From positions 10,081 to 19,832 of the forward strand of contig DMPB01000083.1 of assembly GCA_003456175.1 (NCBI GenBank): a DNA stretch of 9,752 nt, written 5' to 3'. Below the pieces are notes generated by a model. That model did not search any database, had not been told where the DNA came from, and saw only the letters and a program-made list of their open reading frames with translations. Below, in pieces: positions 26 to 9,752 of this stretch. Each line of letters starts with the position of its first letter. Position 1 is the first letter of the stretch. The position numbers were made by a program, and so were the translations under genes. Origin of the DNA: Chitinophagaceae bacterium. Its GTDB lineage: Bacteria > Bacteroidota > Bacteroidia > Chitinophagales > Chitinophagaceae.

Positions 26-2665
26 TTAACGAATTAATACAACCGTACCTTTTTTAACAATCACTTTTCCTGTAAAATCAACGCCTTCAACCGTCCATAC
101 ATAAGTGCCGCTCGGTTGTGCAACACCATTATACATACCATCCCAACCACGGCCTATTTCACTAGTTTGAAATACTAAGTTACCCAAACGATTGTACACT
201 CTGAAGTAGGTAATTCTACTTACACCAATAGGAATCGGACGTAATACATCGTTTCTACCATCGGCATTAGGTGTAAAGCCCGTAGGAACAAATATTTCAG
301 GATCGGTTTGAAATACCTTTACCATCACCTCATCTACACCTTCGCACCCTTCGGCACTAAAAGCACGTACTCTAAAGAGAATACTATCGTAAATCACTGG
401 TATCACCGCCACAGGGTTTGAAATATCGGCTTGATTCAATGGCCAACTTGGCGTCCATAAATAACGCACACCACCCGTTGCTTGTAATTGTAATGGCTGG
501 CTACCTACCACAGCCGTATCGTTACCTGCAAATGCACGAACGGGCGGTATCACCCGCACAAGAATCGTATCACTTACTGGCTTCGGGCAACCTACGGTAT
601 CAGTTACCGATAATACATAAGCTGTTGTAACTGAAGGAGAAGCTGTAGGTGTTAATGTATTCGGATTTGTTAAGCCAAGTGTTGGGCTCCAACTGTAGGC
701 GCTTCCTACAATGTTACCTCGTAATGTAACAGCGTTTCCGCTACAGATGAAGGTATCAACACTTACACTCACTTGAGGGTATGGTGCTACCTTAACGGTC
801 ATAAATGCAGTATCGGCACAAAAATCGCCAAGATTAGCAATGACACGATATGTGACTGTATTACTTGGAGATGCCATAGGATTTTTTGCACTAGCGTTAC
901 TTAATCCGTTACTAGGCGACCAACTGTACCGTAGTGCTTCACTAACGGTATTAATTCGAAACGAATCTGTTTGACACAATGTGGTATCGGGCGGTAGTGC
1001 TACAGATATAAAGGGTAGCACATTCACCTGAATGCTATCGGTTGCAATACAACCATTGTTGTTTAAGGTTACTACATACACTGTTGTATCTCTTGGAAAT
1101 ACAAGCGGATTGGCAGTTGTACGGTTAATAATGCGATTATTGGGTGTCCATGTGAAAACACCTGAACCTTGTGCAATCAAAGGAAGCGTATCTACATTAC
1201 ATATTAGGGTGTCGCGGAATGGTAAGTTCAATGGTGGCTTATCATTTACCGCAAGGTTAAACGTATGGCTATCTTCACAACCTCTTGTATTGCGTGTTAC
1301 CAATGTAACTACATAGTTTGCAGCATTGGGGTAAGTATAATTCGGGTTGGCAATGCGGCTTGTATCGTTGGTGGCGGCATTATTACCAAAATCCCATCGC
1401 CAATAATTCACTACACCGTAAGGCGATACAGTTCTATCCCTGAATTCGTAAGGATTTTGAAAACAAGTACCTGTAACATCGAAATTGGTATTGTATCCTG
1501 GGTATATCCCCAATTCTAAAGAATCAGTAGCATTACAACCGTTCGGGCCAAATACAGTAAGCATTACTTTATAAATGCCAGTATCGGGAAACGTGAATGA
1601 GGGTGTTGGTAAGTTGCTGGTATCGTTGGTACGGTTAGGTACGCCAAAATCCCAGTGGTAAGCTAGAATTGACGAAGATGTAGACCCGTTCTGAAAATTG
1701 TAATTGAACGTTTCGCAGAATGTTCTTTTATTCGGATTCAGGTTGGCTTCTGCAAAATCGCAATCGCCAATAGTCATGATAAAATCTTTACGAGCCTCAC
1801 TAATTTTGATACCTGCTCGCCATTCTTCAACCACAACACAAATTACAAACTTGCCAGCTGTAGCAGGCGCTATGCCGCTAATTACGCCAGTTCGGGAGTT
1901 GATTGTAGCTCTTGGGCCTAATGGTTGTGTTGGTGAATATACACCCGTGTAATTCAGGGGAATGAGTTGTAAAGTTGCAGGAGGCGGAGGATTCGGAGGG
2001 TTAGCACTACCTTGCCCGTCTAAAGCGGCAGCAAAGCGATACACCAAAGAATCGCCATCGGGATCGGTTGCGAAGAATGGTAAGGTGAATGCTTTATCTC
2101 TACAAACAATAGAAGTGTCTTTAATAGCAAACTGTGCACTGCTATTGAACCCTTGCGGTAAAACGTTGGAGCCCGGAATGGTAACAATAAAAGTAGCACC
2201 TGTTTGGCTTGGTGTTACAATAGCATTGTCTAAAGATGTTCTTGTAAAACGTAGCCATGCCATGGTATAACCACCTGCATTAATTGCTAAATCTACCTCT
2301 GCAGAAAATTCGCGGATTTGATAACACAAATTCGGGTCGTTATTCAAACAAGGTATTGCTCCGGGTGTGTTGCGAATGGTTCTGATGGGCGTACCAGCCA
2401 AAGGCAAGCTTTGTATCAAACTCATATCGGCTGTACTATAAATACCTACTGTAACGGTTTCGCCATCTAAAGATTGCCCCTGAGAGGCGCACTCACGAAA
2501 TAATCGCATAGTTACACGATAGCGATTGGTATTAGGATTGGTGCCGGCACCAATACGTTCATAAAACAATTCGCCACCCGCAATGTGCGTTGCCAATGCT
2601 GGCACAACGCCGCAACAAATTAATAATAATGTTACTACTACAACTCTACACCAAGCCATGTACAA
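26..2665 (-). CDS. Secreted PKD-domain protein with T9SS type B (gliding motility-associated) C-terminal domain, paralog 1
   Basis: An 879-residue exported surface or extracellular protein, presumably structural or adhesive; no catalytic motif is seen. Residues 1-26 form a signal peptide (hydrophobic core, cleavage after ALA). Residues 27-300 form the THIAGGE-type N-terminal module common in Bacteroidota PKD proteins, including an ATDPDGDSL segment. Two PKD-like domains follow, at about 304-388 (WDFG at 338-341) and 390-475 (WDFG at 424-427). Four Ig-like repeats then run from about 476 to 786, each with a W-[ST]-P or W-T-P core. The type B sorting domain covers about 789-879 (FVPTGFTPNADGRNDV, then GWDG, PSGTY and KKGTVVLIR), which family knowledge links to export by the type IX secretion system. 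The ATG at 2663-2665 is used here; a second in-frame ATG two codons later is equally possible. It lies 135 bp after its paralog. Unlike the paralog it lacks the RCCR motif in the N-terminal module, having RFTR at 139-142. The exact ligand or role is unknown. Confidence 0.93.
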   Translation of the reverse strand: MYMAWCRVVVVTLLLICCGVVPALATHIAGGELFYERIGAGTNPNTNRYRVTMRLFRECASQGQSLDGETVTVGIYSTADMSLIQSLPLAGTPIRTIRNTPGAIPCLNNDPNLCYQIREFSAEVDLAINAGGYTMAWLRFTRTSLDNAIVTPSQTGATFIVTIPGSNVLPQGFNSSAQFAIKDTSIVCRDKAFTLPFFATDPDGDSLVYRFAAALDGQGSANPPNPPPPATLQLIPLNYTGVYSPTQPLGPRATINSRTGVISGIAPATAGKFVICVVVEEWRAGIKISEARKDFIMTIGDCDFAEANLNPNKRTFCETFNYNFQNGSTSSSILAYHWDFGVPNRTNDTSNLPTPSFTFPDTGIYKVMLTVFGPNGCNATDSLELGIYPGYNTNFDVTGTCFQNPYEFRDRTVSPYGVVNYWRWDFGNNAATNDTSRIANPNYTYPNAANYVVTLVTRNTRGCEDSHTFNLAVNDKPPLNLPFRDTLICNVDTLPLIAQGSGVFTWTPNNRIINRTTANPLVFPRDTTVYVVTLNNNGCIATDSIQVNVLPFISVALPPDTTLCQTDSFRINTVSEALRYSWSPSNGLSNASAKNPMASPSNTVTYRVIANLGDFCADTAFMTVKVAPYPQVSVSVDTFICSGNAVTLRGNIVGSAYSWSPTLGLTNPNTLTPTASPSVTTAYVLSVTDTVGCPKPVSDTILVRVIPPVRAFAGNDTAVVGSQPLQLQATGGVRYLWTPSWPLNQADISNPVAVIPVIYDSILFRVRAFSAEGCEGVDEVMVKVFQTDPEIFVPTGFTPNADGRNDVLRPIPIGVSRITYFRVYNRLGNLVFQTSEIGRGWDGMYNGVAQPSGTYVWTVEGVDFTGKVIVKKGTVVLIR
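1244..1257 (+). repeat. Dispersed motif relative, one mismatch
   Basis: ATTTACCGCAAGGT, differing from the 14-mer only by T to C at the ninth base. It lies in the PKD paralog 1 gene and encodes LAVN (residues 471-474) in the same frame as the exact copies. Confidence 0.55.
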
Positions 2666-2800
2666 TAATTCTATTCAATAAAAGGCGGAAATTACAAATA
2701 ACTATCATCTGCAAGATGAAACATTAGATATTATCGCTGCTTTCTTTAAAAAGTACCCCCAAGTATAGTATGGCTTTAACATTTTACCAACGCATTAACG
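2666..2800. other. Intergenic gap between the two PKD/T9SS paralogs
   Basis: A 135-bp AT-rich gap. A 5-bp hairpin (CATCT-GCA-AGATG, 2708-2720) is the only structure noted, and it has no T-tract. No exact TAnnTTTG promoter element is found on the minus strand. The larger gap than elsewhere in the run leaves open whether the downstream paralog has its own promoter. Confidence 0.4.
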
Positions 2801-5419
2801 CTAGCGAATGAGTACTACTGTTCCCTTCTTTTGGATTAACCTTCCGATAAAATCAACACCTTGTGCCATAAAAACATAGGTACCACTTGGTTGTGCAGCA
2901 CCGTTAAAATTTCCATCCCAACCTTTCGAAGCATCTTGTGTGGTGAAAACAACTTGTCCGTATCGGTTAAATACAGAAAATACGGTAAACTGCTGAATAC
3001 CTACAGGAATGGCCTTAAGCACATCGTTGCGACCATCGGCATTAGGCGTAAACCCCGTAGGAATAAATATATCTGGCGCTGTATTAAACACCACCACTTT
3101 AATATCGTCAGATGCAAAACATCCGTTTGCTTGGCTTACTTGTACACGCAATCGAACACTATCGAAACCTACTGGTATACGTAACACAGGATTTGAAATA
3201 GCAGCATTATTGAGCCATGTAGCAGGGCTCCATAAATACGTTTCGCCACCCGTTGCGAATAATTGCAACGGCTGACCTTCTACAATAGCAGTATCGTTAC
3301 CTGCAAATGCACTTACTGGAGGTATTACCTGAATGGTTACTGTATCAAAAACTGTTTTAGGGCAACCCTGATTACCAATAGCACTTAGAATATACTGCGT
3401 TGAATTAATAGGTGCTACTAACGGACTTAAACTATTGGTGTTTGATAAGCCTACTGCGGGTAACCATGTAAAATTATTAGCTTGTACTGCCCCAATTAAA
3501 CGCATGCTAGTACCACTACATATAAAACTATCTTTTCCTGCATTGGCAAGGGGATAAGGATGAGTAGTTACTTGCATTTGTGCTGTAGCAATACATCGGC
3601 CAACTGCTGCTGTTACTGTATATGTGTTATTGGGCGCTGATGGTGCCACCTTGGGCGTTGCAACTGTAGCATTACTGAATGCATTGGCTGGCTCCCAACG
3701 ATATGAAGTTGCGTTACCTGCTGCAAACAGCGTGATGGAATCGGTGCTGCAAATACTTGTATCTCTATTTACCGTAAGGGTAACATTGTTAATAACCCGA
3801 ACTAAAATACTGGCTTGACCTATACAAGCACCTTCGGTAACTTGTACTGTGTAACGTATATCGGCTGGCGGGAAAACGATTGGCCTAATACTGGTTGGAT
3901 TCGTAATAAACTGTGCCGGTTGCCATTGAACAGTATAATTGGCTCCTAATAAAGTAGGTGCTAGTTGTAATGAATCGAGCCGACACATTAATGTATCTGG
4001 ACTGAGACCAATAAATGGTGCATCTTCTAAATTCAAGGTTTTAGTAACGGTACCAAAACAACCCTTACTACTTACTACTTGTAATACAACAGTACGAGAA
4101 CCAATGCTGTTATAGGTGTATGTAGGATTAGCTAGATTGCTAGTATCGGCAAGGGTTGACAAATCACCAAAATTCCATAAACGTGCTGTAATAGTTCCAT
4201 AACGAGCATTGCTTGTATCTGTAAACTGAATTGGGTTACGATAGCACAAAGTATTAAAGGCGAAGCCAGGATTGAATCCTGGATAAACTCTTACCGTAGT
4301 ATTGGTGGTTGCGCTACAACCATCGGCACCAGCAACACGTAGGGTTACATTGTACGTGCCGGTATCGGCATAGGTAAATGTGGGGGTAGGCTGCGTGCTA
4401 GTATCGGCCTGTGAATTTGGAACACCAAAATCCCAACGATAGGATTGAATAGTGGAGCTGGTAGATTCGTTTTCAAAATTTACCGTAAGGTTATTACAGT
4501 TGATTTTGGGAGATAGTACAGCTTCAATAAAAGAGCAGTCGCCTACTTTCAACACAAAATCTTTACGATGCCGATTGATGGCAACCCCGTTTCGCCATTC
4601 GGTAACAGTTACATTCACTACATAACGCCCTATATTGCCGGGGGCAAAGCCACTTATAACACCCGTTACCTGATTGATAACTACTAAAGGACCTAAAGGA
4701 AGTACTCCGCTATAACCTGCTGCATACATTAAAGGCGTAGTAGTAAAAGTTGCTGGTGGCGGCCCATTGGGAGATTGCGACCCACCATTATAAGCATCGG
4801 TAAATGCATAACTTAAGCTATCTCCATCGGCATCGGTAGCACCAAAATCGAGTGAAAAACTTTTGCCAGCGCATACTAAAGAAGTATCTCGAACATTAAA
4901 CTCTGGACTGGTATTCCAACGATCGTTCACTAAGGCAGAACCAGGCAATTGCGTAGTGTACATGGCTCCAACGCCTGAACCTTGTTCTAAGTTACCCAAA
5001 CGATCTACCCTACAACAACGCCCCCATGCCAAGGTATAGCCTGCAGTGTTATTATCAACTACAATGGTATTTACAAACTCTGCAACTTGGTAGCACACTA
5101 AAGTATCGCCACTAATACATGGAATTCGACTTGCATTCAGTTGAATGGTACGTACGGCGCCTGCAAGCGGTAAGTTAACAGAACGTACGAGCTGACTAGT
5201 GGCATTATCGTAAATACCTAAATTCACCACCTCGCCATTTAGTTGTGGGCCATTACTGGTACATTCTCTAAACAACCTGAGCGTTACTTGATACGTACTA
5301 ACACCATTGGCAGTGTTTAAAAAACGATAATAAATTTCGCCTCCGGCAATATGCGATGCCATTACTGCTTGGTACAACAAGCAGCACAACAAAACTAATA
5401 TTACACGGATGTATGACAT
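2801..5419 (-). CDS. Secreted PKD-domain protein with T9SS type B (gliding motility-associated) C-terminal domain, paralog 2
   Basis: An 872-residue exported protein with the same architecture as the next gene downstream. It has a signal peptide (1-21, cleavage after VMA) and a SHIAGGE-type N-terminal module (22-295) that keeps the RCCR motif at 134-137. PKD-like domains lie at about 297-378 (WDFG at 329-332) and 380-465 (degenerate WNFG at 415-418). Four Ig-like repeats cover about 466-778, and the type B sorting domain covers about 783-872 (FIPTGFTPNADGRNDV, GWDG, KKGTVVLIR). The family is exported by the type IX system and is often surface attached. The cysteines probably form disulfides outside the cytoplasm. 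The start ATG is 3 bp beyond the stop of the alpha/beta hydrolase gene, so the two are very likely co-transcribed and perhaps translationally coupled. Two exact copies of the dispersed motif ATTTACCGTAAGG fall inside the gene, both encoding LTVN. The substrate or partner is unknown. Confidence 0.93.
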   Translation of the reverse strand: MSYIRVILVLLCCLLYQAVMASHIAGGEIYYRFLNTANGVSTYQVTLRLFRECTSNGPQLNGEVVNLGIYDNATSQLVRSVNLPLAGAVRTIQLNASRIPCISGDTLVCYQVAEFVNTIVVDNNTAGYTLAWGRCCRVDRLGNLEQGSGVGAMYTTQLPGSALVNDRWNTSPEFNVRDTSLVCAGKSFSLDFGATDADGDSLSYAFTDAYNGGSQSPNGPPPATFTTTPLMYAAGYSGVLPLGPLVVINQVTGVISGFAPGNIGRYVVNVTVTEWRNGVAINRHRKDFVLKVGDCSFIEAVLSPKINCNNLTVNFENESTSSTIQSYRWDFGVPNSQADTSTQPTPTFTYADTGTYNVTLRVAGADGCSATTNTTVRVYPGFNPGFAFNTLCYRNPIQFTDTSNARYGTITARLWNFGDLSTLADTSNLANPTYTYNSIGSRTVVLQVVSSKGCFGTVTKTLNLEDAPFIGLSPDTLMCRLDSLQLAPTLLGANYTVQWQPAQFITNPTSIRPIVFPPADIRYTVQVTEGACIGQASILVRVINNVTLTVNRDTSICSTDSITLFAAGNATSYRWEPANAFSNATVATPKVAPSAPNNTYTVTAAVGRCIATAQMQVTTHPYPLANAGKDSFICSGTSMRLIGAVQANNFTWLPAVGLSNTNSLSPLVAPINSTQYILSAIGNQGCPKTVFDTVTIQVIPPVSAFAGNDTAIVEGQPLQLFATGGETYLWSPATWLNNAAISNPVLRIPVGFDSVRLRVQVSQANGCFASDDIKVVVFNTAPDIFIPTGFTPNADGRNDVLKAIPVGIQQFTVFSVFNRYGQVVFTTQDASKGWDGNFNGAAQPSGTYVFMAQGVDFIGRLIQKKGTVVLIR
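3767..3779 (+). repeat. Dispersed motif ATTTACCGTAAGG, exact copy
   Basis: Exact 13-mer inside the PKD paralog 2 gene, followed by G. In the gene's reading frame it encodes LTVN (residues 548-551) as CTT ACG GTA AAT. Confidence 0.7.
4478..4490 (+). repeat. Dispersed motif ATTTACCGTAAGG, exact copy
   Basis: Exact 13-mer, extended by T to the 14-mer, inside the PKD paralog 2 gene. It encodes LTVN (residues 311-314) in the same frame and with the same codons as the other copy in this gene. Confidence 0.7.
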
Positions 5420-5422
5420 TGA

Positions 5423-6223
5423 TTAAGCGTGTACTCCTTTTAAGAATGCTAATAAGTATTGATTCACTTGCTGCGGCGCTTCTAACATACCCATGTGCCC
5501 TACTGCAGGTAGCACATGAATATACGTAAGTTCGGCCATTGCAGCTTGCTGCAAGATATCGTTGAGTGGTACAGCCCCATCTTCAGTACCTGCTATCCAC
5601 AAAACAGGCTTTTTCAGTTGTAACACACTGCTATTATCGGGCCGCATCATCATAGCATAGTAGTATGCTTGGAGTGTAATGGTAGGAAAGATATTGCTAT
5701 TATCTATACAAGCTGCTACCACTTCGGGATGTTCATTTTTAAAAGCTGCTCCAAAGAAATTAGGCATAATAGATTGTAAAAAGCTAGCACCACCATATTG
5801 CTCCATTACGGCTATTGCCTTACGTCTGTTTTCTTTCTTCTCAGCACTATCTGCATAAGTCGTACTGTGTACAAAACCAATCGCTTTAACTCTTTTAGGA
5901 TGCGAAGCAGCCATTGCTGCTGCAATATAGCCGCCCATACTATGCCCTATAATTACAGCCGCACTTACGTGCAAATGATCAAGCAAGGCTACCACTACAT
6001 CGTTGTAATCAGTTAAGCTGGCTTCAATTTTACCCGTAAGGGAACTCCCTTCTTTAATGCCGGGCAAGTAAGGCACAATACATTGGTAAGATGTTGCCAA
6101 TGCTGCTATTTGATGCTTCCAAATAGTTGCATCAAAACCGAAACCATGTAGCAGCACAACAGGTGCACCCTGCCCATGGGTTTCAAAATACTGTGTGGTA
6201 TGTTGATATTGAAATTGTTGCAT
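5423..6223 (-). CDS. Alpha/beta-fold hydrolase
   Basis: A 266-residue soluble alpha/beta hydrolase, a normal length for the family, with no signal peptide and so probably cytoplasmic. The oxyanion-hole segment LLHGFG lies near residues 24-29 and the nucleophile elbow GHSMGG at 93-98 gives Ser95. The acid is probably Asp215 in AGTEDGAVP and the base His243 in AVGHMGMLE, so the Ser-Asp-His triad looks complete. A helical cap lies between about 120 and 195. The family includes esterases, lactonases, C-C hydrolases and haloperoxidase-like enzymes, and the sequence alone does not identify the substrate. It sits 7 bp downstream of the DUF4105 gene and 3 bp upstream of the large PKD protein, inside the four-gene run. 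No Shine-Dalgarno sequence is visible before its ATG, which is usual in this phylum. Confidence 0.92.
   Translation of the reverse strand: MQQFQYQHTTQYFETHGQGAPVVLLHGFGFDATIWKHQIAALATSYQCIVPYLPGIKEGSSLTGKIEASLTDYNDVVVALLDHLHVSAAVIIGHSMGGYIAAAMAASHPKRVKAIGFVHSTTYADSAEKKENRRKAIAVMEQYGGASFLQSIMPNFFGAAFKNEHPEVVAACIDNSNIFPTITLQAYYYAMMMRPDNSSVLQLKKPVLWIAGTEDGAVPLNDILQQAAMAELTYIHVLPAVGHMGMLEAPQQVNQYLLAFLKGVHA
5434..5439 (-). promoter_or_regulatory. Possible Shine-Dalgarno AAGGAG before the second PKD protein gene
   Basis: On the minus strand AAGGAG (in the last codons of the hydrolase gene) precedes the ATG at 5417-5419 by 14 bases. The match to anti-Shine-Dalgarno is perfect but the spacing is longer than usual, and this phylum relies little on such sites, so it may be incidental to the K-G codons. 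Confidence 0.25.
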
Positions 6224-6230
6224 GCTTAAC

Positions 6231-7391
6231 TCACTTACGATTACGACTATTTACCCAACCCATTACGCTTAACCAAATTACCAATGGCACTACTGGCAAA
6301 GGCAGTTGCTGTGGTAGCCACCACCAGCTCGCCAATAACAGAGCCATTGCAATAGCTTGAAAATATTGATACCGCTGCCACCATTTTGGCTGCTTCACCA
6401 CAGCCCATGCTGCTACAATATGCCAAGGCCATGCCCAAAGTATATTTAAGTTGTTACGACAAGTTTGATGATCGGTGCCCAACCACATGAACAACAATAA
6501 CACACCCACTACACCAAGCAAATACAACAACAGCGAATACAAAGTAGTAATGAATCGTTGTACAGATGTTTTTTTAGAAAATGCTGATAGTACCAACAAC
6601 CCAAAAAGAATACCAGTTACCCACAGAGGCGGAATTGTTGTTGATGTTTCGCTGGCTAACCTTGCGGTAAATGTTTGCTGCTTTACTTGTACTAAGCGAT
6701 TACTGCTGGCATCTACCGCTTTTAATAAATAGTCTGGTAAGAACTGGCTTTCGTTAATATCAACCACTTTATCGCAAGGCATACCCAACAGCAGATCAAT
6801 ACCGAACTTACTCCAAGGCTGCTTACCGGCATCTAAGTATTGATGCAGCATATTACGATAAGTAGTACCGACTGGTACTAAAGGTTGTTGTATGGTTAAT
6901 CCTTTAGTGTACTTAACAATTAAATCTCTAATACGTGTAGTACAATTATCTAACAAAAAATCGTAATGATAGTATTTATTTGCTGGTAGTAAGTTATGAT
7001 TTAAAGCATCGTACAGCGCTAACTTTTCTTCGCAAGAAAGTTGAAGTACTTGTTCTGTAACAGAACGATTTTCGTATTGATATATCGCTAAGAAATTCAC
7101 ATAGCTTTCTGGGTTCAAATAGTAATCGAGCTTACCTCTTACAAACTTGGTATAAAAATTAGGATCATTAAAGTCAAAAGTTCCATAATTGTACACCACA
7201 TCCATACCAGTAATAGTATCTACAATTCTAAGGGCAGTATGCCCAAACAAGGCATACAGTTCGTTCCCCGGTGCACATGTAAGCACACTTACTTGCATAT
7301 GACATGTAGTAGCGGTATTTTCTTGTGCTTGTACATTTACCGTAAGGTAACTTAACCACAAACTGCAAAAGAGCAGCAATACTTTTTTCAT
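6231..7391 (-). CDS. DUF4105 (Lnb N-terminal periplasmic domain-like) membrane protein
   Basis: A 386-residue membrane protein. Residues 1-22 form a signal peptide (cleavage near VQA/QE). Residues of about 30-220 match my recollection of the DUF4105/Lnb N-terminal family: ELYALFGHTALRI (44-56), a YNYGTFDF block (67-74), FVRGKLDYYL (83-92) and HYDFLLDNCTTRIRDL (142-157). The conserved His51 and Cys150 are plausible active-site residues by analogy with cysteine-peptidase-like folds, but this is inference. The C-terminal part holds about five hydrophobic segments (roughly 255-271, 283-304, 319-332, 345-360 and 363-381), so the globular domain is expected in the periplasm, anchored by a multi-pass tail. 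The gene starts 6 bp after the trans-sulfuration enzyme gene and ends 7 bp before the hydrolase gene. The biochemical role of the family is not established. An exact copy of the dispersed 13-mer lies within the signal-peptide codons. Confidence 0.88.
   Translation of the reverse strand: MKKVLLLFCSLWLSYLTVNVQAQENTATTCHMQVSVLTCAPGNELYALFGHTALRIVDTITGMDVVYNYGTFDFNDPNFYTKFVRGKLDYYLNPESYVNFLAIYQYENRSVTEQVLQLSCEEKLALYDALNHNLLPANKYYHYDFLLDNCTTRIRDLIVKYTKGLTIQQPLVPVGTTYRNMLHQYLDAGKQPWSKFGIDLLLGMPCDKVVDINESQFLPDYLLKAVDASSNRLVQVKQQTFTARLASETSTTIPPLWVTGILFGLLVLSAFSKKTSVQRFITTLYSLLLYLLGVVGVLLLFMWLGTDHQTCRNNLNILWAWPWHIVAAWAVVKQPKWWQRYQYFQAIAMALLLASWWWLPQQLPLPVVPLVIWLSVMGWVNSRNRK
6659..6672 (-). repeat. 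Dispersed motif relative, one mismatch, opposite orientation
   Basis: ATTTACCGCAAGGT read on the minus strand, with the same single T to C change as the copy at 1244-1257. It lies in the DUF4105 gene in sense orientation and encodes different residues (TFTARL), so protein similarity does not explain it. Confidence 0.55.
7335..7347 (+). repeat. Dispersed motif ATTTACCGTAAGG, exact copy
   Basis: Exact 13-mer, extended by T, within the signal-peptide codons of the DUF4105 gene. It again encodes LTVN (residues 16-19) with identical codons, although the host protein is unrelated to the PKD proteins. Confidence 0.7.
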
Positions 7392-7397
7392 GTCATT

Positions 7398-8624
7398 TTA
7401 TTTTAATGCCTGTGCAATATCGGCGATAATATCTTCAATGTTTTCAATACCTACACTCATACGAATGAGGCCGTCGGTAATACCATATTTCAAGCGTTCT
7501 TCCCTAGGCACTCCATAGTGCGTCATACTTGCAGGATGCGACACCAATGTATCTAAAGTGCCTAACGATACGGCTTTTGTAAGCATTCGTAGCTTATCAA
7601 TAAACTGCTTGCCTTGCGGCAAACCACCAGCCAACTCGAAACTTAGCATAGCACCAGGATGCTTCATTTGTTGTTGTGATATAGCGTAGCCGCTATGGCT
7701 TGGTAACCCATTATAATTCACTTGTACCACTTGCGGATGCTGTGCTAAAAAAGCAGCCACTTGCTCGGCATTGCTACAATGGCGCTCCATCCGCAACTCT
7801 AATGTTTTAAGGCCTTGATGCAATAAAAAAGCATCGAAAGGGTTACTGTTACCACCAAGTAGCCGATGCCACTTGGTGGCTTTGGTTGCCATAAAATCGA
7901 GGTCTTTGCCAATTAATATACCTCCCATAGCTGTGCCATGCCCATTTAAAAATTTAGTGGTACTATGAAAAACAAAATCAACGCCTTTGTATTTGAAAGG
8001 TTGCTGCAAGTACGGTGTAGCAAACGTATTATCAACAGATACCTTTACGCCGTACTGTTGTGCAATTGCTGCAACCGCAGCAATATCAATACATTGAATG
8101 GTAGGGTTCGCTGGCGTTTCAATATGTATCAACTTAATGTTCGGGTGTTGCTCCAAAGCCGCCGCAACCAACGCAGGCTGCTGCATATCTACAATAATTG
8201 TGGTAACACCAGCATCGTGCAACACTTTATGTAGTATTTCGTGCGTACCACCGTACAAAGAATAATGCGAAAGCACTGCATCGCCACTTTGCAAATTGCT
8301 TAAAAACAAAGTACTCATAGCAGCTTGTCCGCTTGCATGTAGCAATGCTTTTAATTCGAGGGGCGTACCATTATCGTTTAAAATACCTTGGGCTTCTAAC
8401 GCTGCGATGGTAAGTTCTACAGGCGTGAATGATGGGTTGCCCCAACGACTATAAATATACCCGGGTGCTTCGCCGGCAAAGCGTTGCATACCCTCGTCGG
8501 CAGTATCGAAGGTAAAAGTTGAAGTAGCAAAAATCGGGTTCAAATGTGCATGCTCAGGAAGTGATTGGCTAGCCGTATGCAAGGCAATACTACTCACTCC
8601 TTTTAACGTTGAAGAAGTACTCAT
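7398..8624 (-). CDS. PLP-dependent trans-sulfuration family enzyme (cystathionine gamma-synthase / methionine gamma-lyase-like)
   Basis: A 408-residue cytosolic fold-type I PLP enzyme of the Cys/Met metabolism family, at full family length. Visible landmarks are YSRWGNP at 58-64 (the Tyr and Arg reach the phosphate of the neighbouring subunit's PLP), SGQAAM at 98-103 (phosphate loop), Tyr124 in YSLYGGTH (ring stacking) and Asp198 in VDNTFATP (pyridine nitrogen). Lys224 in STTKFLNGHG is the Schiff-base lysine, and Arg388 in LIRMSVGIE binds the substrate carboxylate. The VSLGTLDTL...HPASMTH block (352-369) looks more like methionine gamma-lyase. However, the position of the lyase-specific cysteine (YGCT) is Gly here (YGGT), as in cystathionine synthases and lyases and in acetylhomoserine sulfhydrylases. 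Exact specificity therefore stays open. It is probably the first gene of the four-gene run, 111 bp after the receiver gene; no methionine-type riboswitch was recognised in that gap. Confidence 0.93.
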   Translation of the reverse strand: MSTSSTLKGVSSIALHTASQSLPEHAHLNPIFATSTFTFDTADEGMQRFAGEAPGYIYSRWGNPSFTPVELTIAALEAQGILNDNGTPLELKALLHASGQAAMSTLFLSNLQSGDAVLSHYSLYGGTHEILHKVLHDAGVTTIIVDMQQPALVAAALEQHPNIKLIHIETPANPTIQCIDIAAVAAIAQQYGVKVSVDNTFATPYLQQPFKYKGVDFVFHSTTKFLNGHGTAMGGILIGKDLDFMATKATKWHRLLGGNSNPFDAFLLHQGLKTLELRMERHCSNAEQVAAFLAQHPQVVQVNYNGLPSHSGYAISQQQMKHPGAMLSFELAGGLPQGKQFIDKLRMLTKAVSLGTLDTLVSHPASMTHYGVPREERLKYGITDGLIRMSVGIENIEDIIADIAQALK

Positions 8625-8702
8625 ACTACGAATGTAATAGCAATCTGTTTAGGCATAACACCTTGCTGTAATAAATCGGCGAGCCTCAGCTAGCAATGTT
8701 TT

Positions 8703-8718
8703 AGGTATAAGCATACCT
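8703..8718 (-). other. Short hairpin downstream of the receiver gene
   Basis: AGGTAT and ATACCT form a perfect 6-bp stem with a 4-base loop (8709-8712), five bases beyond the previous hairpin. On the minus strand it is followed by AAAACATT, not by Ts, so it is not a standard intrinsic terminator. Its right arm (in plus-strand order) overlaps the dispersed motif copy at 8716-8728. Confidence 0.4.
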
Positions 8719-8728
8719 TACGGTAAAT
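8716..8728 (-). repeat. Dispersed motif ATTTACCGTAAGG, exact intergenic copy
   Basis: Exact 13-mer (14-mer with the following T) on the minus strand in the gap after the receiver gene, where no protein constraint applies. It bridges the two small hairpins at 8703-8718 and 8724-8742. Confidence 0.7.
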
Positions 8729-8742
8729 AGATTTGCTATTTA
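8724..8742 (-). other. Hairpin overlapping the receiver gene stop codon
   Basis: TAAATAG / CTATTTA form a perfect 7-bp, AT-rich stem around a 5-base loop (8731-8735). The stop codon TAG of the receiver gene (8736-8738) sits in one arm. No U-tract follows, so it is not a standard terminator; it could affect mRNA ends or be incidental. Confidence 0.4.
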
Positions 8743-9101
8743 GACGTAAGTTGTAATGCTAAAGCAATCAGCTCTTTAGGAATAACAGGCTTACGCAAAT
8801 AAGCCGCTACCCCCATTTTCACACTTTCTAATTCAGAAGCTTGTGTTGTTACCGCTGTAAGTACAATGATGGGCGTATCCTTTGTTTCAAAGTTTCTCTT
8901 AACCCTATCTACTACTTCTAATCCATTGGCATAAGGCATCATTAAATCGGTTACGATGAGATCGTACTTTTGTTGCTCTGCCATGGCAATGCCTTCTTTG
9001 CCATCTTTAGCCATAGCAATATCAAAGCCTTGTTGCTTAAAAATAATTTCGAGCACTTTCAAAAGAGTGGCATCGTCTTCTATCAGTAGTACTTTTTTCA
9101 T
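8736..9101 (-). CDS. Stand-alone response regulator receiver domain (CheY-like)
   Basis: A 121-residue single-domain receiver with no output domain. The acidic pocket is Glu8-Asp9-Asp10 (LLIEDD) and the phosphoacceptor is Asp52 in VTDLMMP. The switch Thr is Thr82 in VLTAV, the switch aromatic is Tyr101 and the conserved Lys is Lys104 in LRKPV, so all key residues are present and it should be phosphorylated normally. Single-domain receivers usually act by protein-protein contact or as phosphorelay intermediates. No histidine kinase gene is in this window, so its partner is unknown. It follows the fabH terminator and probably has its own promoter in 9102-9152. The only partial match to the Bacteroidota -7 element there is TATTTTG (TAnnTTTG less one spacer base), without a well-spaced upstream element, so I do not annotate a promoter. 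Confidence 0.95.
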   Translation of the reverse strand: MKKVLLIEDDATLLKVLEIIFKQQGFDIAMAKDGKEGIAMAEQQKYDLIVTDLMMPYANGLEVVDRVKRNFETKDTPIIVLTAVTTQASELESVKMGVAAYLRKPVIPKELIALALQLTSK

Positions 9102-9204: not shown

Positions 9205-9752
9205 TTACTCGGTATCATAAGCCCATTTAATCCAAGTAGCACCCCATGTGAAACCGCCACCGAAGGCTGCGAGTATAATATTATCGCCTTTTTTTAGTTG
9301 CTTTTCCCAATCCCACAAGCATAAAGGTAGCGTACCTGCGGTGGTATTGCCATAACGTTGAATATTCACCATTACCTTATCCATAGATACACCCATACGT
9401 TCGGCGGTTGCACTGATAATACGTAAGTTGGCTTGGTGGGGTACCAACCACGCTACATCATTTGCCGTAAGGCCATTACGTTCCATAATTTCTGCACTTA
9501 CATCGGCCATGCCGGTTACAGCGAACTTAAAAACGGTTTTACCATCTTGATATACATAATGCTCTTTGGCAGCTACAGTAGCCGCAGATGCAGGCTTAAC
9601 ACTACCACCAGCTTTCATGTGCAAGTAATTACGCCCCTGACCATCGCTGCGCAGAATACTATCTTGCAAGCCCATACCTTCTGTATTGGGCTCTAATAAA
9701 ACTGCGCCTGCACCATCGCCAAAAATGATACAGGTAGCCCGATCGGTATAAT
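9205..9752 (-). CDS. fabH: 3-oxoacyl-[ACP] synthase III (FabH), C-terminal part, start outside window
   Basis: The C-terminal 182 or so residues of beta-ketoacyl-ACP synthase III, which condenses acetyl-CoA (or a branched acyl-CoA) with malonyl-ACP to start fatty-acid synthesis in the cytosol. The reading frame stays open to the window edge (complete codons from 9750). Upstream of the first in-frame Met at 9675 it reads [18 protein letters not shown], the classic FabH block, so that Met is internal and not a start. The catalytic His is in [10 protein letters not shown] and the catalytic Asn in [12 protein letters not shown]; the glycine-rich [11 protein letters not shown] lies near the end. 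The active-site Cys and about 150 N-terminal residues lie beyond the window. The gene ends with TAA at 9205-9207, and a strong terminator follows within about 20 bp. A dispersed-motif relative at 9460-9473 falls in this gene. Confidence 0.95.
9460..9473 (+). repeat. Dispersed motif relative, two mismatches
   Basis: ATTTGCCGTAAGGC in fabH, encoding GLTAN. It keeps the CCGTAAGG core. On its own it would not be notable; it is listed because it joins the set of related sites. Confidence 0.3.

What the first reader, a model, noticed from the sequence alone, without database searches (positions are those of the whole stretch)
1244..8728. A 13-mer, ATTTACCGTAAGG, is dispersed through the window in four exact copies plus close relatives
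Seen: exact copies at 3767-3779, 4478-4490 and 7335-7347 (plus strand) and 8716-8728 (minus strand); three are followed by T. One-mismatch 14-mers occur at 1244-1257 and 6659-6672. Weaker relatives are at 9460-9473, 2151-2163 (TTTACCGCAAGG on the minus strand), 6028-6042 (one inserted C) and 1415-1423 (ACCGTAAGG core). With equal base frequencies, one given 13-mer is expected about 0.0003 times in this window counting both strands. Copies occur in unrelated genes, in a gap and in both orientations. Known analogues are DNA uptake sequences (Haemophilus, Neisseria), HIP1 in cyanobacteria and Chi-like or other protein-binding words. I know of no such word with this sequence in Bacteroidota. Inference: a genome-wide iterated word, possibly tied to uptake, recombination, repair or restriction-modification.
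Basis: partly seen in the sequence, partly recalled or inferred. Interest (0 to 1): 0.72.

Follow-up and report, generated by a model that had tools for sequence, protein, structure and literature searches.

The report
Strand-specific hairpin word marks genome
One bacterial genome, by its proteins likely of the phylum Bacteroidota, carries 1,879 copies of a short DNA word whose paired letters change together like a tiny hairpin and which avoids copies of itself on the same strand; it likely acts as a self-label for taking up DNA, which would be the first such label in that phylum.

Summary
The genome (G000, 3.12 Mb draft) holds 1,879 exact copies of TTTRCCGYAAGG, reversed control 0. None of 393 other genomes of the family holds more than 13 copies of the narrower TTTACCGYAAGG. 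A scan of one genome for each of 84,980 species for its inverted-pair form found nothing (own genome may be left out). Copies arose by substitution in place, even at a near-invariant residue, and are scarce in AT-rich stretches. These traits resemble DNA uptake sequences (USS/DUS).

Two traits do not. The word is a covarying mini-hairpin, 5'-CATTT-[R C(1-3)]-GNAA-[G(1-3) Y]-3': stem letters and stem length change together. And copies of the same orientation avoid each other within about 1 kb while opposite orientations ignore each other; Pasteurellaceae USS show no such rule beyond 200 bp. Both suggest a signal read on one folded strand, more likely DNA than RNA.

Best reading: an independently evolved uptake word in a bacterium with ComEC and DprA but no type IV pilin found. 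No uptake experiment exists.

The parts
1245..1256 (+). form 1 word TTTACCGCAAGG, antisense in PKD/CHU_C protein (reads NLAVN)
   Evidence: protein family
2151..2162 (-). form 1 word TTTACCGCAAGG, sense in the same PKD/CHU_C protein (reads LPQG)
3768..3779 (+). form 1 word TTTACCGTAAGG, antisense in second PKD/CHU_C protein (reads LTVN)
4479..4490 (+). form 1 word TTTACCGTAAGG, antisense in second PKD/CHU_C protein (reads NLTVN)
6029..6042 (+). form 3 word TTTACCCGTAAGGG (stem one pair longer), in the alpha/beta hydrolase gene 5423-6223
   Evidence: this form is enriched in the genome sample, TACCCGTAAGGG 17 vs 0.06 expected
6660..6671 (-). form 1 word TTTACCGCAAGG, sense in Lnb_N protein (reads FTAR)
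7336..7347 (+). form 1 word TTTACCGTAAGG, antisense in Lnb_N protein (reads YLTVN); folds as a 5-bp stem with GTAA loop
7612..7623 (-). form 1 word TTTGCCGCAAGG, sense in Cys/Met PLP enzyme; reads LPQG where 113 of 120 aligned homologs have alanine at the Q position
8716..8727 (-). form 1 word TTTACCGTAAGG between the PLP enzyme and response regulator genes
8789..8800 (-). form 2 word ATTTGCGTAAGC (stem one pair shorter, G-C outer pair), in the response regulator gene 8736-9101
   Evidence: form 2 is enriched in the genome sample, ATTTACGTAAGT 59 vs 0.32 expected
9461..9472 (+). form 1 word TTTGCCGTAAGG followed by C (G-C outer pair), antisense in the ACP synthase III gene (reads LTAN)

Best explanation
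This is a genome-wide, strand-specific DNA word that covaries as a mini-hairpin (5'-CATTT, then a stem R C(1-3) / G(1-3) Y closed by a GNAA loop), and it most likely works as a DNA uptake sequence, a self-label that the transformation machinery would read on one single strand of incoming DNA. Shown: copy number, absence from all relatives examined, origin by substitution in place, scarcity in AT-rich stretches, stem covariation, and same-orientation exclusion over about 1 kb. Inferred: fragments that carry the word are taken up or processed preferentially and recombined into the chromosome, so a mutation that makes a word spreads by biased gene conversion, as argued for USS and DUS. Inferred: because the signal is read on one folded strand, a second copy on the same strand within the length of an imported piece adds nothing and is not kept, while a copy on the other strand serves the other strand. 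Inferred: the reading protein is not a type IV minor pilin, as none was found.
For: 1,879 copies, near 1:1 orientation, control 0. Absent from relatives and, in its pair form, from the species collection. No orientation bias against GC skew (p = 0.49) and no contig-level strand bias. Denser outside ORFs, 1.18 vs 0.35 per kb; 34 close inverted pairs. Published USS/DUS traits agree: about 10% inverted repeats, no orientation bias, non-coding excess (passages of PMC1939737). Birth by substitution: 0 of 17 sites with a gap within 3 residues in orthologs of at least 45% identity. Scarce in AT-rich stretches. Covariation: outer pair Fisher p = 9e-35, inner pair 25 compensated doubles vs 1.55 expected, stem-length match. 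Same-orientation exclusion, also between forms of different stem length. ComEC, DprA, a triple-HHH protein, NamZ_N/DUF1343 and Mg_chelatase_C/ComM type are present. Riemerella transforms with such genes and homolog-poor extra proteins (PMC8459023), and R. columbina prefers its own DNA (passages of PMC7965970).
Against: No competence or uptake has been shown. The same ComEC and DprA genes occur in relatives without the word. DUF5689, essential in Riemerella, was not found in G000 (draft 81% complete); ComF and RecA were not searched. No type IV pilin was found and the only ATPase match over the cut-off is partial, 25.2 bits over 56 of 370 positions. USS show neither strand exclusion beyond 200 bp nor, to my knowledge, hairpin reading. 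Low G+C alone lowers the chance of words in islands. Single words fold weakly alone, -1.1 to -2.7 kcal/mol as DNA. One genome only.
Confidence: 0.5

Rival explanations
1. The word is a chromosome-maintenance signal read as a hairpin on single-stranded DNA during replication or repair (priming, fork restart or a Chi-like recombination site), needed at regular spacing on each strand.
For: Strand-specific spacing with no effect of the opposite strand and hairpin covariation fit a signal read on one strand. Spacing within each orientation is more even than random: CV 0.71 and 0.79.
Against: No orientation bias against GC skew and no contig-level strand bias, unlike Chi in E. coli (recalled). Absent from all relatives examined. 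Selection on single sites would have to hold about ten invariant positions in some 1,900 copies with few near misses. Scarce in AT-rich stretches.
Confidence: 0.2
2. The word is a double-strand binding site for a nucleoid, segregation or modification protein, like HIP1 or other iterated words.
For: Genome-wide, both orientations, near-even density.
Against: Stem letters covary across the loop, whereas the double-strand palindrome partner pos3/pos7 is not positively linked (odds ratio 0.43). A double-strand site should not exclude only its own orientation.
Confidence: 0.1
3. The word acts in RNA, as a GNRA-loop hairpin read by an RNA-binding protein or nuclease.
For: GNAA loop closed by C-G and covarying stem are RNA-like; RNA folding energies -2.2 to -4.6 kcal/mol.
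Against: Between tandem genes the words are not oriented with transcription: 54 with, 45 against, p = 0.42. In ORFs 139 of 219 form 1 words (R core) are antisense.
Confidence: 0.08
4. The words are REP-like elements kept by a REP-associated tyrosine transposase (RAYT), which binds single-strand hairpins with a short 5' foot.
For: A 5' foot (CATTT) followed by a hairpin, and inverted pairs, match the REP layout as I recall it.
Against: Copies arose by substitution, not insertion; about half lie in ORFs (219 of 462). No RAYT was identified: a crude motif scan of the sample gave 4 ORFs that I did not examine further, and the genome-wide family search was not run.
Confidence: 0.06
5. The same-orientation exclusion is only the trace of deletions between short direct repeats, and says nothing about function.
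For: Only direct copies are excluded, and most strongly at short range.
Against: Pairs that differ by a base are excluded about as strongly as identical ones (T with C 6:34, T with T 5:21 at 80-700 bp). Forms of different stem length exclude each other, 5:21 at 80-400 bp, p = 0.0025. Ordinary 10-13-mer direct repeats outnumber inverted ones at 80-1000 bp, though protein repeats add to them. USS direct pairs are not depleted beyond 200 bp.
Confidence: 0.06

Closest known systems
Uptake signal sequences (USS) of Pasteurellaceae
   Same: Short word at about 0.6-0.8 per kb, both orientations, inverted pairs. Both known USS types share an inner GCGG (passage of PMC12616744), and the complement of the C variant here, CCTTGCGGTAAA, contains it.
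   Different: USS in the 75 loci kept show no same-orientation exclusion beyond 200 bp (25:25 at 200-400 bp; neighbours 129:136). Pasteurellaceae have type IV pili (same paper); no pilin was found here.
DNA uptake sequences (DUS) of Neisseriaceae
   Same: Inverted pairs in high numbers and word variants within the family (passages of PMC3630211).
   Different: Read by the minor pilin ComP (passage of PMC12616744); no pilin here, and no shared word in the relatives examined. DUS letters were not compared here.
Pilus-free natural transformation of Riemerella (Bacteroidota)
   Same: ComEC, DprA, an HHH protein and DUF1343 are shared by gene family (PMC8459023). R. columbina prefers its own DNA (passages of PMC7965970).
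   Different: DUF5689 not found in G000. No uptake word turned up in the passages of these papers that I read.
REP elements with RAYT transposases (recalled)
   Same: 5' foot plus single-strand hairpin; inverted pairs.
   Different: Substituted rather than inserted, half in genes.

Membership tests
USS/DUS-type uptake sequence | about a thousand or more copies of a 9-12-nt word in one genome | tested here: met
   948 + 931 copies, control 0
USS/DUS-type uptake sequence | equal orientations without replication bias | tested here: met
   948:931; GC-skew test p = 0.49, contig-level strand bias absent; no complete chromosome to test against the origin
USS/DUS-type uptake sequence | excess outside genes and a share as inverted pairs | tested here: met
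   1.18 vs 0.35 per kb; 34 close opposite pairs among 462 sites, 0 of the 22 '-+' pairs inside an ORF
USS/DUS-type uptake sequence | words arise by substitution in homologous DNA | tested here: met
   0 of 17 with a gap within 3 residues; PLP enzyme
USS/DUS-type uptake sequence | type IV pilus with a word-binding minor pilin | tested here: not met
   no N_methyl pilin in G000, only a partial weak T2SSE match; draft is 81% complete
USS/DUS-type uptake sequence | word enhances DNA uptake | not testable with these tools
   needs an isolate
USS/DUS-type uptake sequence | competence genes | tested here: met
   ComEC, DprA, Mg_chelatase_C/ComM type; these also occur in relatives without the word
Chi-like recombination site | orientation bias with replication | tested here: not met
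   GC skew used as a proxy on contigs
HIP1-like palindromic word | double-strand palindrome | tested here: not met
   pos3/pos7 not positively linked; the word is not its own reverse complement
REP/RAYT | foot plus hairpin | tested here: met
   stems of 2-4 pairs, shorter than REPs as I recall them
REP/RAYT | extragenic, spread by insertion | tested here: not met
   219 of 462 sites in ORFs; no gaps at 17 sites
REP/RAYT | RAYT gene in the genome | not tested
   only a motif scan of the sample, 4 unexamined ORFs

The most novel reading that the evidence does not exclude
A new class of genome-wide code: more than two thousand single-strand DNA hairpins, defined by structure (covarying stem of variable length, fixed CATTT foot and GNAA loop), laid down by substitution on each strand independently, and used to recognise self DNA as imported single strands in a pilus-free Bacteroidota transformation system.
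Probability: 0.35. Interest if true: 0.94.

Novelty: new variant of a known kind. Interest (0 to 1): 0.87.

Why it matters
[quoted passage not shown] A third, independent case in Bacteroidota would show convergent evolution of self-labels and give a handle on the poorly known pilus-free uptake machine of that phylum. The hairpin covariation and the one-strand spacing rule would make directly testable which strand is read and how long the imported pieces are. In the PLP enzyme the word coincides with a change at a near-invariant alanine, which looks like DNA-level drive overriding protein sequence.

Tried and rejected
Direct-repeat deletion as the cause of exclusion: judged unlikely on the variant and stem-length tests and the repeat control. 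Chi-like or replication-oriented site: no strand bias. Double-strand palindrome or dimer site: wrong covariation. Insertion element: no gaps within 3 residues at 17 sites. Another dialect in relatives: 40 stretches from 40 genomes showed no dispersed 11-mer in more than 4 copies, while five of six G000 stretches showed the word at 7-10; the sixth (L036) was topped by an unrelated local repeat at 6. Twenty kb per genome would miss a sparse word. Phage carriage: 47 viral contigs with one match each and none with two, which I judge to be background; the expectation was not computed. comEC neighbourhood: 10 proteins around comEC gave no uptake candidate. Species name: not obtained; the closest proteins with names are Chitinophagaceae and Sediminibacterium. 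Plasmids: no match for the PLP gene. Idea that the G variant escapes exclusion: dropped, because part of the signal comes from one run of three copies in L141. Print search: the ten paper searches listed no report of this word or of an uptake word in Bacteroidota that I recognised; lists are capped (12 of 3,811), and preprints and most subscription papers are not held.
Full report
WHAT WAS CHECKED. The four exact 13-mers are present at the stated places, with 8 matches at up to two mismatches against a mean of 0.30 in shuffles. The window lies in G000 contig 114, in a 3,122,328-bp draft of 213 contigs, 81% complete. There the 13-mer with up to one mismatch occurs 908 + 920 times, against 3 + 6 for the reversed pattern. 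The refined core TTTRCCGYAAGG occurs 948 + 931 times, against 0 + 0. In the first 275,605-bp sample TTTACCGTAAGG was counted 110 times against 0.17 expected from an order-4 Markov model.

WHO HAS IT. Among 78 relatives (one of the same genus, the rest of family and order) the 13-mer with up to one mismatch occurs 1 to 21 times per genome, like its reversed control. Among 393 other genomes of the family, drawn evenly from a larger group, TTTACCGYAAGG occurs 0 to 13 times. The inverted-pair form CCTTRCGGTAAAN{4,34}TTTACCGYAAGG was found 0 times in a collection of one genome for each of 84,980 species; the own genome may be left out there. The same-genus G001 has 0 cores in about 0.43 Mb and no comparably enriched word of its own in its first sample. 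Forty stretches from 40 relatives (39 of 20 kb, one of 10 kb) show no other dispersed 11-mer in more than 4 copies; five of six G000 stretches used as positive controls show the word at 7-10 copies, and the sixth (L036) is topped by an unrelated local repeat. The family is likely Chitinophagaceae, from the names of the closest named proteins.

WHAT THE WORD IS. I took 61 stretches of G000 (756,443 bp, of which 40,780 are masked N). The core occurs 462 times: A..T 283, A..C 109, G..T 60, G..C 10. The ten invariant positions have 1 to 7 near misses each, 32 in all. After masking the core, two related words remained strongly enriched, CATTTACGTAAGT and TTTACCCGTAAGGG. The three forms fit one shape: CATTT, a stem of R C(1-3) with G(1-3) Y, and a GNAA loop. 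The numbers of sites in the sample are 480, 99 and 23 for forms 1, 2 and 3, 0.84 per kb, or about 2,600 if scaled to the draft. C-run and G-run lengths agree: (1,1) 158, (2,2) 408, (3,3) 24, against off-diagonal (1,2) 11, (1,3) 3, (2,1) 12, (2,3) 66, (2,4) 6, (3,1) 1, (3,2) 6. At the outer pair A goes with T (269) and G with C (60 of 71 Gs); Fisher p = 9e-35 on the A/G by T/C table. The link G-with-C holds in coding (p = 1e-20) and non-coding DNA (p = 6e-17) apart. A with G, C or A is also tolerated (67, 45, 27), so A seems to be read directly. At the inner pair, compensated double changes number 25 against 1.55 expected, other non-consensus combinations 9 against 4.86. The middle C-G pair hardly varies (316 consensus, 3 others), which says nothing for or against. 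The partner expected for a double-strand palindrome, pos3 with pos7, is not positively linked (odds ratio 0.43, p = 0.02). Single words fold weakly on their own (-1.1 to -2.7 kcal/mol as DNA; -2.2 to -4.6 as RNA), so a protein would probably have to hold the fold.

SPACING RULE. For TTTACCGYAAGG (392 sites), pairs of the same orientation are 1 against 12.1 expected at 80-200 bp and 2 against 19.9 at 200-400, rising to 0.98 of expectation at 1.5-2 kb. Opposite pairs stay at 0.87-1.33 of expectation from 80 bp to 2 kb. Neighbours at least 80 bp apart are 109 same and 204 opposite (p = 9e-8); lags 2-5 show nothing. With the G variants included the effect is weaker but clear (3 vs 16.8 and 7 vs 27.6 expected; neighbours 133:239). 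The rule is present in the first set (2:23 at 80-400 bp) and in the second set taken later (1:13, p = 0.002); at 400-1000 bp the second set alone is not significant (9:16, p = 0.23). It holds within one gene (11:31), between gene and intergenic sites (19:48) and between intergenic sites (12:29); pairs in two different genes are too few to judge (7:11 same direction, 1:6 opposite direction). Forms 1 and 2, which differ in length, exclude each other (5:21 at 80-400 bp, p = 0.0025); form 2 with itself does not show it (3:3 at 80-400, 3:0 at 400-1000), on few pairs. Over all three forms neighbours are 177 same and 313 opposite. Pasteurellaceae USS, measured the same way with the seed hairpins left out, give for the 9-mer (53 loci with at least 4 sites, of 75 kept) 9:18 at 80-200 bp, 25:25 at 200-400 bp and 129:136 for neighbours; the 10-mer gives 92:113 for neighbours, p = 0.16.

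HOW IT ARISES AND WHERE IT IS MISSING. In 17 sites within orthologs at least 45% identical to G001 there is no gap within 3 residues, and word residues are less conserved than flanks (39% vs 62%, p = 0.0015). With all identities and a window of 6 residues either side, 15 of 42 sites had a gap, two of them at 45% or more, with the gap further than 3 residues from the word. In the window, the PLP enzyme reads LPQG at a place where, among the 120 listed homologs (the own one included, best of 7,422), the third residue is alanine in 113 and Q only in the own protein. Coding copies prefer one frame: 104 of 219 antisense, giving L-T/A-V-N. Of the five largest word-free gaps, three are low in G+C (29%, 33%, 34% against 40%) and two are not (37%, 39%). 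I scanned 20 proteins of the three low ones: they hold a tyrosine integrase and a two-component pair, mostly unassigned genes, and a glycosyltransferase-capsule-Wzt cluster. Density rises with G+C (rho 0.43); windows under 33% hold 2 sites in 8 windows. Low G+C itself lowers the chance of such words, so this is supporting, not decisive.

GENES. ComEC, DprA, a 313-aa protein with three HHH_3 repeats, NamZ_N/DUF1343 and a ComM-type C-terminal domain are present. DUF5689 was not found, nor a type IV pilin; the one T2SSE match over the cut-off is partial (25.2 bits over 56 of 370 positions). The genome is incomplete, so absences are weak. ComF and RecA were not searched. In Riemerella anatipestifer ComEC, DprA, ComF, RecA, an HHH protein, DUF1343, a DUF5689 protein and a protein with a carboxypeptidase-regulatory domain proposed as a barrel are essential (abstract, passages and section 20 of PMC8459023). 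R. columbina prefers its own DNA (passages of PMC7965970).

READING. The copy number, equal orientations, non-coding excess, inverted pairs, birth by substitution and scarcity in islands are what biased uptake is held to give in USS and DUS genomes (passages of PMC1939737, and PMC3630211; island scarcity from my own knowledge). The covarying stem and the one-strand exclusion suggest that the signal is read on a folded single strand. Lack of orientation relative to tandem genes (54:45) makes DNA likelier than RNA. Transformation yields long single-stranded self DNA and can write words by substitution, so I commit to an uptake or import label, at about even odds. A replication or repair signal on single strands is the main rival. 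The exclusion range of about 1 kb would then estimate the length of the imported or recombined strand; that is inference.

LIMITS. One draft genome, a 24% sample for most statistics, self-made ORF calls (longest open frames of at least 90 aa), and no experiment. The p-values treat sites as independent.

Noticed in passing
L036 (G000 contig 28, first 4.7 kb): A local family of dispersed repeats (CAGTAGTACAA six times, CCGAAAATAAA five times, TTTGTACAAAA five places) in register, unrelated to the word.
   Followed up: no
G000 sample of 756 kb: After masking the word, GGCCGCCCCA is also enriched, 17 counted against 0.51 expected.
   Followed up: no
window 26-5419: Two neighbouring, similar genes for PKD-domain proteins with CHU_C type IX secretion signals; blocks of 70-76% DNA identity 2,775 bp apart.
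   Followed up: partly
L031 1-14683 (G000 contig 6): Word-free stretch of 29% G+C with a tyrosine integrase and a histidine kinase / LytTR regulator pair.
   Followed up: partly
G418 (family member, 67% complete): Highest background count in the family search, 13 copies of TTTACCGYAAGG with 12 on one strand; its first 20 kb shows no dispersed word.
   Followed up: partly
word complement CCTTGCGGTAAAT: Contains GCGG, the inner core of both Pasteurellaceae USS types (passage of PMC12616744); may be coincidence.
   Followed up: no
flank at -9 of the word, G000 sample: G at 45% nine bases before the core and low G for about a dozen bases after it, outside the hairpin; meaning unknown.
   Followed up: no
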